DNA of 64,000 bases from Vicinamibacteria bacterium (GTDB lineage Bacteria; Acidobacteriota; Vicinamibacteria; Fen-336). Each line of letters opens with the position of its first letter. Position 1 is the stretch's first letter. A model generated the notes under the pieces. The model saw only the letters and a program-made list of their open reading frames with translations, was not told the origin of the DNA and searched no databases. The position numbers and the translations under genes were made by a program. Location of the stretch: positions 62,001-126,000 of the forward strand of contig DATMML010000091.1 in NCBI GenBank assembly GCA_035570235.1. Direction: 5' to 3'. Of the stretch, positions 19,189 through 23,328 are shown piece by piece.

Positions 19189-19431
19189 CGGGCTCCGCCG
19201 GCCGCCCCCTAGGAGCGCTTGACCGAACAGCGACCCCGGCAGCCGGTTGCGACCAAGCAGAGGCTGCCCTAGGCCATTGGACCTGACTCGGCGTCGGTTG
19301 GTGGTAGTGGGGTATCCTGACTCGCCCCACAATTGCGGGCGCTGTGGCCAGGAGGGCCGAAGGTAAAGCACGTCGAGCGTCGACACCCCCGCCGACGTTT
19401 GGCTGAAGCCGCGGGAAGCGTGAACGGCACG

Positions 19432-19460
19432 TTGAGGACGCGGACTCCGACTTGTAGAAT
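19432..19460 (+). promoter_or_regulatory. Promoter of the four coiled-coil genes
   Basis: TTGAGG (19432-19437) and TAGAAT (19455-19460) are separated by 17 bases. Transcription would start near 19467, giving a leader of about 100 bases that contains the dyad at 19514-19530. The 19189-19431 stretch between secG and this promoter holds no gene I can support. Confidence 0.5.
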
Positions 19461-19513
19461 GGCCGTGAGCCGGCGCACACCCTCCAACCGCTCGGCCCCG
19501 TAGGTTCGTGGCG

Positions 19514-19530
19514 GGGGAAGCAGCTTCCCC
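19514..19530 (+). promoter_or_regulatory. 17-base dyad in the leader of the coiled-coil operon
   Basis: GGGGAAGCAGCTTCCCC is a perfect palindrome around one central base, 38 bases before the first start codon. As RNA it forms a 7-base stem with a CAG loop; as DNA it could be an operator. No run of T follows, so it is not a typical terminator. Confidence 0.5.
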
Positions 19531-19568
19531 GTCCCTTGTCGGAAGCCGGGCCCCAGGGAGCTCCCATC

Positions 19569-20435
19569 ATGGCCGACATGAACGAGCTGTTGAGCCGGGC
19601 CGCCCAGGAGGCCGAGGCCGTGGCCCTGCAGGCAGCCCAGGTGGCGGAGGGGGCGGAACGGTTGCTCGAGCAGGCCACGAGCCTCGGGGAACGTGTCGAG
19701 GCCGAGCACGAGGAGGCCCGCCGGCGGCTGGTCGACCTGGAGCGCCACCTGCGGGACGGCCAGCTGGTCCGCCCGGAGACCGCCGCCGCTCTGGCTGCCC
19801 TCCGGTCGGGCCAAGCCCGCGACGTCGCCCTGCGGGCCCAGGCCGAGGAGTTCCTGGGCCGGCTTCACACCGAGCTGGCGGGGCTACGGGGCGAGAAGGA
19901 GCGGGTGCTCGGCGAGCTGGAGCCCCGGGCCCAGGCCGCGGAGGCGGACGTGGCCGCGTACGCGGACCGCGTCCGGCAGCTCGAGGCCGCAACCGAGGCC
20001 CGACAGGAGGCGGCGCGGGCGGCCCTGGGCGCTCTCCGGGAGCAGGCGGCGGCGGCCCGCACCACCCTCCGCGACCGGCGGAGCCTCCTTCTCGCGGAGC
20101 TCCGCGTCTTCGAGGAGTCCCTCCGGGAGCGGCTCGACGCCCTTCTGAAGACCTTCGAGGCCTTGGGGCTCGGCCTCCAGGAGCAGGCCCGCGACCTGGC
20201 GGGAGCCCTCAATTCCCTTTCCGAGCGCGCGGCCTTGGGCCTGAGGGAGCGCTTCGCTCGCGAAGCCCTTGTGCGCCTGGCCGAGTCAGCGGAGGGGCTG
20301 AAAGGGGGGATGAGGGCAGCCGAGGAGTTCGCGCAGGAGCAGGAGCGGCGGCTGCAGAAGGCCTTCGAGACCCTCTCGGACCTGATGAAGGCCACCAACG
20401 ATAGCCAGAGGACGGTTATACGAAACCTGCGGTAG
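19569..20435 (+). CDS. Coiled-coil protein A of a four-gene tandem set, function unknown
   Basis: 288 residues, helical throughout and very rich in Ala, Glu, Leu and Arg. It has no cysteine, no signal peptide and no membrane segment. Heptad-like spacing of Leu/Ala runs through most of the chain, for example LDALLKTFEALGLGLQEQA near residue 195. It ends with a less acidic helix, SDLMKATNDSQRTVIRNLR. Apolipoprotein-like or SMC-like domain hits would be expected from composition alone, so they would not prove function. It is the first of four same-strand genes of similar size. The ATG at 19569 was chosen over upstream codons because it fits the spacing from the promoter. A structural or scaffold role is inference. 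Confidence 0.7.
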   Translation: MADMNELLSRAAQEAEAVALQAAQVAEGAERLLEQATSLGERVEAEHEEARRRLVDLERHLRDGQLVRPETAAALAALRSGQARDVALRAQAEEFLGRLHTELAGLRGEKERVLGELEPRAQAAEADVAAYADRVRQLEAATEARQEAARAALGALREQAAAARTTLRDRRSLLLAELRVFEESLRERLDALLKTFEALGLGLQEQARDLAGALNSLSERAALGLRERFAREALVRLAESAEGLKGGMRAAEEFAQEQERRLQKAFETLSDLMKATNDSQRTVIRNLR

Positions 20436-20459
20436 AGACGAGGATCGGGGAGCGGCCCC

Positions 20460-21374
20460 ATGGCTGAGCTGGACGTCGCCGGCAGTCTGGCCCTGGAGCG
20501 GGCCACCGCCCTCCTTCTGGGGGTGGACGCGGCCGAGGCTCGCCTGGCCGAGGCGCGCGAGCGGCTCGCACGGGCGGTGGCCGACTCTGAAGCCGAGTGG
20601 TCCCGGCTGGGCGGGCTGGCGGCAGAGGCCGCGGCCGAGATAGCGGCTGAGGCCCAGGAGCTCTTCGGGGAGGGGACGCAGGCCCAGGAGGCCCTCCTCC
20701 AGCTCCGGGGGAGCTACGAGCGGTTGGCTACGGAGGCGGAGGAGGAGAAGGAGCACATCGAGGAGGAGCTGGAGGCCTTCGCGGGACGGCTGCGCGAGGT
20801 GGATCCCGCACTCCAGAAGGGGCTGGCCGAGGCCGAGCAAGCCGCGCAGGGCCTCCGCGAGCGAGCGGAGGCGCTGGAGGGGGAGCTGAAGCAGGCGCTG
20901 GCCGCGGCCGAGGCCGACCTCCATGATGACCTGGCGGGGGAGCTGCGCGAGCTCGAGGACGGCATCCGTGAGCGGACGGAGGCGCTCGGGGCGTTCCTGG
21001 TGGGGGAGGCCGTGCCCACCGTCAACGCGGCGGTAGAGGAGCTGCTGGCCCAGCTCCAGGGGGCGGAGGCCTCGGTCCGCGAGTCCCTCGAAGCTGCCGA
21101 GCGGACGGTGGCGGAGGGAGCGGAGAGCGCCGTGGACGAGGTCGCGGCCGGACACGAACAAGCCCTAAACGAGTTGGCCGATTTGGGAACATCCCTGGAA
21201 ACGCTGCTGCACAAGCTGAATGCGCTCGCCGAGGATGGGGGGACAGCGGTCCAGAAGGACGGGGACGCGCTGAACGAGGTCGGACGCGAGGCCCAGGAGA
21301 GCCTGAACGCCACCCTCGGTCTGGTAAGGGACGTGGAGGAGACGCTACGGCACTACAGCTTCGTCCATTTCTGA
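20460..21374 (+). CDS. Coiled-coil protein B of the tandem set, function unknown
   Basis: 304 residues beginning MAELDVAGSLALERA, with long alternating Ala/Glu/Leu helices throughout. It is strongly acidic, with clusters such as LATEAEEEKEHIEEELEAF near residue 90. It contains no cysteine and only one tryptophan. Gly/Pro residues near 180-190 (VGEAVPTVNAA) may be a hinge between two rods. The C-terminus ends in the aromatic tail HYSFVHF. GGGGAGCGG precedes the ATG, 24 bases after the stop of gene A. No catalytic motif, lipobox or membrane segment is visible. Confidence 0.7.
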   Translation: MAELDVAGSLALERATALLLGVDAAEARLAEARERLARAVADSEAEWSRLGGLAAEAAAEIAAEAQELFGEGTQAQEALLQLRGSYERLATEAEEEKEHIEEELEAFAGRLREVDPALQKGLAEAEQAAQGLRERAEALEGELKQALAAAEADLHDDLAGELRELEDGIRERTEALGAFLVGEAVPTVNAAVEELLAQLQGAEASVRESLEAAERTVAEGAESAVDEVAAGHEQALNELADLGTSLETLLHKLNALAEDGGTAVQKDGDALNEVGREAQESLNATLGLVRDVEETLRHYSFVHF

Positions 21375-21401
21375 GGCTGCAGGGTCCAAGGTAACTTGCT
21401 C

Positions 21402-22376
21402 ATGGCCGATTCCACTCCGCTCGAGAGTCTGGAGCAGTTCCTGGGCCTCCTGGGCGGGGTGCGGGCGCAACTCGAGAGCGCAGGCGCGCGGATCGTCTCC
21501 GAGAGCGAGGCCCTCCACGGTGGCGGGCGGGAGGCCGAGGCCGCGCTGGCCGCCTTCGCGGAGACGCTGGCCGCGGGAGTCGAGCGCCTCGATTCTGTGC
21601 AACTCGACGGTGTCAATGCGGTGCGGGCCTGGACGGAGGCCCTCACATCCGGACTCAGCGGCCCCCTCGCCGAGGCGGAGCCGCGCCTCTCGGAGACCGG
21701 CGACCGGTTCGGACTGGAGGTCGAGTCCGCCCGGGAGGCCCTGGAACGCGAGCGGATGGCCTGGTCCGAGGACCTGGGTGAGCTGGAAGCCACCCTGGGT
21801 ACGCTGGAGGAAGAGGTGGGTTCACTCGTTCTGTCCACCGACCAGGCCTTCGCAGTCCTGGAGGCCGCGCTCACTCACGCCGCGGAGAGCCTGTCCGCCG
21901 CCGTCACCGAGGCCCAACTCGAGGCACAGACCCTGGGCGACCTCGCCGCGGGGGACCTCCTGAGCATTGCGGAGGGTGGATTTCGCGGCCTCACCCTGGA
22001 AACCACGGACCGGCTGTCCCCCCTGGAGGAGAACCCCCTAGGGGTGATGGGCCGGGGCGCGCTCACGCGTCTTGAAGAGTCGTCGGAGACCGGGCAAGTC
22101 TTCGGCCACAACACGATCGAGAGAAGCGCGGACCTACTCGATGGGGTGGCCCCGCACTGGGTATCGGCCCGGGAGGCAGCCGCCTCCGCCCTTGACCAGG
22201 CGGTAGACGACCGGGGTGGAGAGCTCCGGGAGGAGCTGGAGGAGGTGGGAAGCGCCCTCGCCGAGGGAGTGGACGTGAGCGCCGGCTACTCTCCCCTGCT
22301 CCCCCAGCTGCCACCGGTCCGTGATGCGGTGGAGAAGATAAGCGAGATGCTGGACGCCATGAACCCGTTCGCTTGA
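21402..22376 (+). CDS. Coiled-coil protein C of the tandem set, function unknown
   Basis: 324 residues starting MADSTPLESLEQFLGLLGG. The first two thirds are acidic helix (Ala, Glu, Leu). The segment about 195-245 (SPLEENPLGVMGRG, then SETGQVFGHNTIERSA) has more Gly, Pro and Asn and may be a small folded or flexible insert. Helix then resumes to the end, which reads ISEMLDAMNPFA. There is no cysteine, signal peptide or membrane segment. The ribosome site before ATG 21402 is weak (AAGGTAAC), and a TTG two codons earlier is possible. It starts 28 bases after gene B. Confidence 0.68.
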   Translation: MADSTPLESLEQFLGLLGGVRAQLESAGARIVSESEALHGGGREAEAALAAFAETLAAGVERLDSVQLDGVNAVRAWTEALTSGLSGPLAEAEPRLSETGDRFGLEVESAREALERERMAWSEDLGELEATLGTLEEEVGSLVLSTDQAFAVLEAALTHAAESLSAAVTEAQLEAQTLGDLAAGDLLSIAEGGFRGLTLETTDRLSPLEENPLGVMGRGALTRLEESSETGQVFGHNTIERSADLLDGVAPHWVSAREAAASALDQAVDDRGGELREELEEVGSALAEGVDVSAGYSPLLPQLPPVRDAVEKISEMLDAMNPFA

Positions 22377-22410
22377 GGACCGAGGATCACCCCCGGAGGC
22401 AACCGCCGTC

Positions 22411-23328
22411 ATGATCGACGCCGAAACCCTGAAAGAAACCCTGAGGGCGCTCTCGGAAACCCTCCCCACCCTCTCCCCCCGCGTGGAAGCCCTCATCGCG
22501 GACGGGGAGTCGCTGAGGTTGGAGGCGGAGGAGGCGGCGCGGGAGCTGCGGGAGCGGCGGGCGGATGCGGAGCAGGTCTTGGCCCGCGTGGAAGTCGCCC
22601 TGGGCGAGCTGCGCGACGGGTCCGTGGCCCGCGGGGCGCTGATGGAGCAGGGCCTGGACGCTCTGACCCCCGCTCTCAATTCCTCTCTGGCGGCCGTGCC
22701 CATGGTCGGTCCCCTCGTGGCCCAGGCCACGGCCATCGATCTCACGATCCTGAAGCAGGCTCCGACCCTCCTCCGGGCCGCCCAAGAAGAGGCGGAGCGG
22801 GCTCTGGCTTCCCTGCAGGAGGGCGTCAGCACGGGAGAGGCTGCCCTCGGCACGGCGCTGGAGGAAGTGGCCCAGGCCGAGGAGTCTTTCCGTTTGCGGC
22901 TGGAGGCCGCGCAGACCGGGCTGACCGAGCGCGTGGAAGTCCTGGTCCAGGCCATGGAGGCGCGGCAAGTGGAGGCCCTGCAGCGACTGGGAACGGCGGG
23001 CGAGGTCTTTGCCAGCCTGGAGGCCGACTTCCAGGACCGGCTCACCGCCGTGAACGAGCGGATCGTGCAGGCCCGGACGTCGCAGCTGCTGGACGCGACC
23101 CGGGACCGGGCGGCCGAGCTCCAGCAGCAGATCGAGGCCGCACTCTCCCAGATCACCGACACCCTGAAGGAGGTGAGCCACGGCGTGCGTCGCACCCGGG
23201 ACGACGCCGCCCAAGGGCGCGAGGTCCTCCTTCCCCTTTTTGCAGAGCTGCACCGGCGGCTGGAGCCGCTGAAGCGGGCGGTGCAGTCGGTGAAGGAAGC
23301 CGCGGAAGAGGTGGGGGTTCCCCTCTAG
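22411..23328 (+). CDS. Coiled-coil protein D of the tandem set, function unknown
   Basis: 305 residues beginning MIDAETLKETLRALSETLP. Helical and acidic like A-C, but with a more hydrophobic stretch near residues 88-115 (NSSLAAVPMVGPLVAQATA, then IDLTILKQ) that could pack as a core or touch a membrane without being a clear transmembrane segment. It has no cysteine. The end is VKEAAEEVGVPL. CCGGAGG precedes the ATG. It is the last gene of the set; its stop is three bases from that of the convergent VWFA gene, so the unit is closed on this side. Confidence 0.7.
   Translation: MIDAETLKETLRALSETLPTLSPRVEALIADGESLRLEAEEAARELRERRADAEQVLARVEVALGELRDGSVARGALMEQGLDALTPALNSSLAAVPMVGPLVAQATAIDLTILKQAPTLLRAAQEEAERALASLQEGVSTGEAALGTALEEVAQAEESFRLRLEAAQTGLTERVEVLVQAMEARQVEALQRLGTAGEVFASLEADFQDRLTAVNERIVQARTSQLLDATRDRAAELQQQIEAALSQITDTLKEVSHGVRRTRDDAAQGREVLLPLFAELHRRLEPLKRAVQSVKEAAEEVGVPL

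What the first reader, a model, noticed from the sequence alone, without database searches (positions are those of the whole stretch)
19432..23328. Four tandem, cysteine-free coiled-coil genes of unknown function with their own promoter
Four same-strand genes of 288, 304, 324 and 305 codons follow one another with gaps of 24-34 bases behind one promoter (TTGAGG-N17-TAGAAT) and a 17-base dyad. All four are Ala/Glu/Leu-rich helical proteins without cysteine, signal peptide, membrane segment or recognisable enzymatic motif. They end with short hydrophobic or aromatic tails (FVHF, NPFA, GVPL). Four similar-size rod proteins encoded together suggest a multi-part cytoplasmic filament, scaffold or nucleoid-associated structure. 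The sequence shows the layout and composition; that the proteins work together is inference.
Basis: partly seen in the sequence, partly recalled or inferred. Interest (0 to 1): 0.75.

Follow-up and report, generated by a model that had tools for sequence, protein, structure and literature searches.

The report
Four-paralogue helical rod cassette, partly toxin-linked
Four neighbouring genes in an uncultured acidobacterium encode four related rod-shaped proteins that recur as a fixed set of four, up to five times per genome, and one branch of these sets sits directly beside toxin genes, which suggests a previously undescribed protein complex that may carry or handle toxins.

Summary
In detail: four + strand ORFs (288, 304, 324, 305 aa; gaps 24, 27, 34), cysteine-free, helical, no family hit. 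They are not a one-off. Orthologues of all four recur together as 17 cassettes in 6 of 14 genomes of one Vicinamibacteria family, four in this genome; elsewhere in the class and phylum samples only coiled-coil background was found. The four types form four clades. A, B and D align end to end in register well above reversed-sequence controls, so they are paralogues; C probably too. Usual order is A-C-D-B; here A-B-C-D. Every genome with cassettes has a core locus beside one: a 2-TM coiled-coil protein, divergent Hsp70, one-TM, FHA and PDZ or DUF481 proteins. One cassette clade is flanked by toxin-type genes in 4 of 5 resolvable cases (protein-glutaminase; papain-fold deamidase + Imm35; pre-toxin TG; nuclease-like + SuFu), the other cassettes in 0 of 11. 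No T7SS ATPase was found. Best reading: a hetero-oligomeric helical rod docked to the core membrane locus, recruited in one clade as a toxin carrier. This window's cassette has no toxin neighbour, so its cargo is unknown. The mechanism is inferred, not shown.

The parts
19370..19386 (.). 17-base dyad (7-bp stem, 3-base loop)
   Evidence: one search lists it as a minus-strand terminator-like match; number found equals chance expectation
19432..19460 (+). sigma-70-like promoter match TTGAGG-N17-TAGAAT
   Evidence: one found, 0.0 (sd 0.1) in shuffles; consensus match only
19569..20435 (+). gene A, 288 aa helical rod protein (type A; starts MADMNELL)
   Evidence: orthologue in all 17 cassettes
20460..21374 (+). 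gene B, 304 aa (type B; family tail FSFVxM, here YSFVHF)
   Evidence: in the canonical order B is last, here it is second
21402..22376 (+). gene C, 324 aa (type C; tail DAMNPFA)
22411..23328 (+). gene D, 305 aa (type D; tail EVGVPL)
   Evidence: AlphaFold all-helix, low confidence

Best explanation
The four genes encode one complex: four ancient paralogues (A, B, C, D), each about 300 residues of near-continuous helix with conserved ends, that assemble side by side into a hetero-oligomeric helical rod. The rod works with a core membrane locus found beside one cassette in every genome that has cassettes: a 2-TM coiled-coil protein (X), an Hsp70-like ATPase, a one-TM protein, and FHA, PDZ or DUF481 proteins. 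Extra cassettes are specialised copies. In one clade the rod is a dedicated carrier or recruitment complex for small toxins that lack any signal peptide. In two of these toxins the docking element would be a shared N-terminal peptide (MSGxxPxPLIxxPxWL). The window cassette is a separate specialised copy whose cargo is not encoded next to it. Shown: recurrence as a set, paralogy of A, B and D, core locus linkage, toxin linkage in one clade. Inferred: that the four bind each other, that X and Hsp70 act on them, that they carry toxins, and whether anything leaves the cell.
For: 17 four-type cassettes in 6 genomes, each type its own clade (A 100/99, B 97/98, C 98/98, D 100/97) with concordant sister pairs for the window cassette across the four types, which implies co-inheritance as a unit. 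A-B, A-D and B-D profiles align over 293-297 columns in register, scores 116-135 against at most 82 for reversed controls. Core locus X, Hsp70 (PF00012 1.1e-68), one-TM, FHA, PDZ/DUF481 adjacent to a cassette in all 6 genomes (the G002 contig shows X, DUF481 and FHA only); X found in a GTDB-wide pattern scan only in genomes with cassettes. Toxin-domain genes directly flank the cassettes of one clade: L028 protein-glutaminase (PF18626 3.2e-28; PDB protein-glutaminase 1.7e-13), L034 papain-fold deamidase PF15644 with Imm35, L030 PF14449, L068 Endonuclease_NS-like 2.4e-4 plus SuFu 2.9e-8. These domains are rare: PF15644 one, PF14449 one and PF18626 two hits in 12 family genomes. The N-terminal motif scores 54 between two toxins of unrelated families; its DNA pattern occurs three times in 12 genomes, the two toxins and one intergenic chance hit, and the cassette-free glutaminase of G002 lacks it.
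Against: The window's own cassette has no toxin neighbour; nor have the 10 other cassettes outside the toxin-linked clade. The PT-TG protein and the nuclease-like protein do not share the N-terminal motif. No secretion ATPase is linked. AlphaFold gives helices but no confident fold or complex (pTM 0.25 and 0.33). No binding data exist. The toxin linkage was noticed before it was counted, so any p-value is post hoc.
Confidence: 0.45

Rival explanations
1. A cytoplasmic structural filament or scaffold, made of four paralogous rods and tied to the core Hsp70/FHA membrane locus for cell envelope or cell organisation; toxin genes landed beside some copies by genome hitchhiking.
For: All-helix predictions, no signal peptides, core locus without toxins, window and 10 other cassettes without toxins; weak profile hits to vimentin, keratin and tape-measure proteins.
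Against: Four different rare toxin or immunity types beside 4 of 5 resolvable cassettes of one clade, and a shared N-terminal motif in two unrelated toxins are hard to get by hitchhiking. The weak filament hits are composition, not homology.
Confidence: 0.33
2. A multi-component alpha-helical pore-forming toxin of the ClyA/Nhe/Hbl/YaxAB type, with tandem paralogous subunits.
For: Tandem genes of about 300 codons, paralogous, all-helical.
Against: No signal peptide and no hydrophobic tongue (maximum 19-residue hydropathy mostly below 1.5); no match to solved pore-forming toxins by sequence or fold.
Confidence: 0.05
3. Lipid- or granule-coating amphipathic proteins (apolipoprotein- or phasin-like).
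For: Weak profile matches to apolipoprotein A-IV (2.6e-14), Apolipoprotein (4.1e-6, below cut-off) and Phasin (0.048) in Pfam.
Against: All Pfam matches far below curated cut-offs; the helical period of the window proteins is 3.5-3.6, coiled-coil like, rather than the 3.67 of apolipoprotein 11-mers (the 3.67 is from own knowledge); no lipid or PHA gene is linked.
Confidence: 0.08
4. Substrates or targeting factors of a type VII secretion system, as LXG/Lap proteins are.
For: Helical proteins without signal peptide next to toxins; one toxin carries PT-TG; weak LXG hit 0.067.
Against: Only one FtsK_SpoIIIE protein over the cut-off per genome, of FtsK size; no EssC/EccC-like multi-domain ATPase in five genomes. 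Proteins are about three times the length of WXG100 or Lap proteins.
Confidence: 0.04
5. Chance neighbours: four unrelated coiled-coil genes.
For: Low sequence identity between types; coiled-coil composition inflates profile scores.
Against: Recurrence as a set in 17 cassettes; the four type labels need only 3 changes on the tree, and 0 of 200 shuffles come as low.
Confidence: 0.01

Closest known systems
LXG effector with Lap1/Lap2 targeting factors (type VIIb secretion; PMC9600955)
   Same: All-helical partner proteins without signal peptide encoded beside a toxin gene; in the known case they bind the LXG domain and promote export.
   Different: Here four paralogues of about 300 aa, no LXG domain on the toxins, no EssC-type ATPase in the genomes, different phylum, no sequence relationship found.
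Polymorphic toxin systems (Zhang et al. 2012, PMC3482391)
   Same: Interchangeable small toxin domains with cognate immunity genes (Imm35 and SuFu are named immunity families there) at loci of one clade.
   Different: The associated helical rod cassette matches no module known to the libraries searched, and most cassettes, including this one, have no toxin.
Phage tail tape-measure proteins
   Same: Long helical rods; weak PHROGs hits to core-type members (2.5e-10).
   Different: No other tail genes nearby, no PHROGs hit below 0.007 for the window proteins themselves, no relatives in viral contigs; the hits look like coiled-coil background.
ClyA / Nhe / Hbl / YaxAB alpha pore-forming toxins
   Same: Tandem paralogous helical subunits of similar length.
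   Different: No signal, no hydrophobic tongue, no sequence or fold match.

Membership tests
LXG/Lap targeting factors of T7SSb | EssC/EccC FtsK-like secretion ATPase in the genome | tested here: not met
   one FtsK-size hit per genome, others below cut-off
LXG/Lap targeting factors of T7SSb | LXG domain or Lap/WXG100 family match | tested here: not met
   best LXG 0.067, far below cut-off
LXG/Lap targeting factors of T7SSb | partner proteins bind the toxin N-terminus | not testable with these tools
   no complex prediction available; needs co-purification
Polymorphic toxin system (toxin-linked clade only) | recognised toxin domain gene adjacent | tested here: met
   for L028, L030, L034 and (sub-threshold nuclease) L068; not met for the window cassette
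Polymorphic toxin system (toxin-linked clade only) | cognate immunity gene adjacent | tested here: met
   Imm35 4.5e-6 (27.2 bits, cut-off 27.5) at L034 and SuFu 2.9e-8 (over cut-off) at L068; none recognised at L030
Alpha pore-forming toxin (ClyA type) | hydrophobic membrane-inserting segment | tested here: not met
Alpha pore-forming toxin (ClyA type) | fold match | tested here: inconclusive
   no match at E <= 0.001, but the model is low confidence
Apolipoprotein / phasin | family match over curated cut-off | tested here: not met
   27.1 bits against cut-off 90; phasin 14.2 against 28.8
Type VI secretion | TssB/TssC sheath genes in the genome | not tested
Phage tail tape-measure protein | tail gene neighbourhood or viral relatives | tested here: not met

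The most novel reading that the evidence does not exclude
A previously undescribed toxin delivery machine of Acidobacteriota: a four-paralogue helical rod, energised or folded by a dedicated Hsp70-like ATPase, anchored by a 2-TM coiled-coil protein and regulated through FHA domains, that loads interchangeable toxins through a short N-terminal docking peptide, with sister rods (including this window's) carrying other cargo.
Probability: 0.25. Interest if true: 0.85.

Novelty: new variant of a known kind. Interest (0 to 1): 0.6.

Why it matters
If right, it adds an unknown helical carrier to the ways bacteria move or handle toxins, in a lineage known only from metagenome-assembled genomes here, and it gives a function to gene sets that no family library recognises. 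Even without the toxin reading, a set of four paralogues kept together through 17 cassettes with an Hsp70/FHA membrane locus is an unexplained multi-protein structure that can be tested directly by co-expression.

Tried and rejected
Family libraries: Pfam, NCBIfam, PHROGs, PADLOC and PDB sequences give only coiled-coil background for the four proteins. Fold search of a 72-pLDDT model gave no match at E <= 0.001. A direct genome-contig scan with type D failed for want of a conserved stretch, so the core protein X was used instead. Hits of the type D profile elsewhere in the phylum (E down to 5e-11, partial, one per genome in nearly all cases) were judged coiled-coil background; the class hit G099 likewise. 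Viral contigs: no relatives. Plasmids: no relative of the L034 toxin. The third motif hit, in G001, is intergenic, hence chance. The PF18626 copy on G002 contig 2 has no cassette, so a glutaminase is not tied to cassettes by necessity. An early idea that lack of cysteine marks secretion was dropped because relatives contain cysteine. T7SS was rejected. Three literature searches for the combination found nothing on point.

Full report
Observation. They are Ala/Glu/Leu rich, without cysteine and without any hydrophobic segment that could cross a membrane. The promoter-like match at 19432-19460 is the only one in the region and is not expected by chance in shuffles; the 17-base dyad at 19370-19386 is at chance frequency. 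The long antisense ORFs listed by the ORF tool are by-products of high G+C: the + frames have GC3 of 0.83-0.91 and conserved relatives.

Families. No Pfam, NCBIfam, PHROGs, PADLOC or PDB family is convincingly matched. Weak hits (apolipoprotein, ATG17, tape-measure, ZorA, vimentin) are those that long charged helices usually give.

The set recurs. Searching the own genome with each protein gave further loci. Fetching them showed complete four-gene cassettes, each with one member of each type. A profile of type D over 193 genomes of the class found more. In all there are 17 cassettes in 6 genomes: four in G000 (the window's), five in G002, two each in G001, G005, G011 and G013; in G001 the core cassette is split between two contigs within gene D (loci L036 and L038; the two pieces cover D residues 4-266 and 261-303). 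All six belong to one family; 8 other genomes of that family have none. Public names of four of them are Vicinamibacteria/Acidobacteria MAGs, one of them fen_336. A sample of 396 genomes of the phylum gave only partial hits of 5e-11 or weaker outside the family, a level I take as coiled-coil background.

Four types, one set. A maximum-likelihood tree of 62 proteins puts every protein with its type: A 17 rows, B 15, C 14, D 16, each one side of a well supported branch, three label changes in all, the least possible. The window's A, B, C and D are each sister to the corresponding protein of the same second cassette of G002 (support 99/96, 98/95, 98/95, 99/88), although the gene order differs. 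The canonical order is A-C-D-B; the window has A-B-C-D. So the four travel as a unit.

Paralogy. Profile-profile comparisons of A-B, A-D and B-D align 293-297 columns in register with scores 135, 125 and 116. The same comparisons with reversed sequences, which keep composition and heptad character, reach at most 82. A, B and D are therefore paralogues. C scores 84-94, just above the controls, but always colinear; it is probably a diverged fourth paralogue. Each type keeps its own ends: A starts MAxMNELL, B ends FSFVxM-like, C ends DALNPF/L-like, D ends VGIxF-like.

Structure. AlphaFold with 16 type D sequences gives two long helices, 4-94 and 112-300, pLDDT 64.5, pTM 0.25. With 48 sequences of A, B and D on protein B it gives helices 2-113, 118-264 and 269-298, pLDDT 71.7, pTM 0.33. 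The secondary structure is believable, the tertiary arrangement is not. Foldseek against PDB finds no match at E <= 0.001.

Core locus. In every cassette-bearing genome one cassette lies beside the same group of genes, mostly next to nuo genes: X, a 630-950 aa protein with two central hydrophobic segments and coiled coils, without any Pfam family (a weak LeoA hit, 2.8e-4); an Hsp70-like protein of 507-509 aa (PF00012, 1.1e-68; 75% mean column identity among five); a one-TM protein; an FHA protein; and a PDZ or DUF481 protein. In G002 the contig ends inside X, so its Hsp70 was not seen there. A pattern scan of GTDB contigs with X returned only cassette-bearing genomes.

Toxin-linked clade. In the D and A trees, and with weaker coverage in B and C, cassettes L028, L030, L034, L037, L068 and L069 group together. 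L037 is cut off by its contig. Of the other five, four are flanked by toxin-type genes on the same strand. L028: a 232-aa protein with PF18626 (3.2e-28), similar to solved protein-glutaminase (1.7e-13) with the CYARAH, YHVA and IDPS stretches aligned, then a 146-aa partner. The same pair, toxin and partner, stands without a cassette in G002, which makes the partner a likely immunity protein. L034: PF15644 papain-fold deamidase toxin followed by Imm35. L030: PF14449 pre-toxin TG. L068: upstream of gene A, a 161-aa protein with a sub-threshold nuclease match (2.4e-4) and a SuFu protein (2.9e-8); SuFu is a named immunity family for nuclease toxins (PMC3482391). None of the 11 cassettes outside this clade has such a neighbour. 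By my arithmetic a Fisher test of 4/5 against 0/11 gives about 0.003; the toxin pattern was noticed before counting, so this is only a guide. The domains are rare: in 12 genomes of the family PF15644 and PF14449 have one hit each and PF18626 two.

Shared N-terminal peptide. The two deamidase toxins of L028 and L034 belong to different families but begin MSGGPAPLPLIPYPGWL and MSGPDPVPLIDMPDWL (alignment score 54; among the top 0.2% of random N-terminus pairs, a background that includes true homologues). The DNA pattern for PLIxxPxWL occurs three times in 12 genomes: the two toxins and one intergenic site in G001. The cassette-free glutaminase of G002 lacks this peptide. The PT-TG protein shares only MSxPD. 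I read the peptide as a possible docking tag; it is a lead resting on two sequences.

Export. By eye these toxins begin without a signal peptide. A type VII system was not found: five genomes have a single FtsK-size FtsK_SpoIIIE protein over the cut-off and no EssC/EccC-like one. Type VI was not tested. No viral relatives were found.

Interpretation. I think the four proteins form one hetero-oligomeric helical rod that works with the core membrane locus, and that in one clade the rod has become a carrier or recruiter for toxins. This would work like LXG/Lap presecretion complexes (PMC9600955) but fails their membership tests. The main rival is an intracellular scaffold with toxins as hitchhikers. 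The window's cassette has no toxin neighbour; its cargo or role is not known, and what I say of it rests on its relatives.

Noticed in passing
L070:3900-5360, L071:7764-9230, L072:10263-11704: A subtype of the cassette has gene C split in two; the first half carries a C-terminal tail of 8-residue repeats (SLIGNDAG / SLVAAGAGN) of unknown role. No family hit beyond noise.
   Followed up: partly
L034:931-4713 and L068:7722-10562: Large secreted-type proteins (FG-GAP/DUF11 and Calx-beta) beside two toxin-linked cassettes share a C-terminal tail EPxTGxSFDTxLxPR.
   Followed up: no
L035:4775-9696 with L031, and L070:2991-10958: Two cassettes in direct tandem, in two different genomes.
   Followed up: partly
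L081:8456-9644: Protein-glutaminase toxin-like gene with a 150-aa partner homologous to the one at L028, at a leucine biosynthesis locus without a cassette.
   Followed up: yes
L029:12246-13865: 539-aa protein with C-terminal TPRs, looking like a methyltransferase, directly behind the core cassette of the window's genome only.
   Followed up: no
L033:17353-19308 (protein X): Conserved 2-TM coiled-coil protein without Pfam family; weak match of residues 206-538 to the PADLOC LeoA model (2.8e-4).
   Followed up: partly
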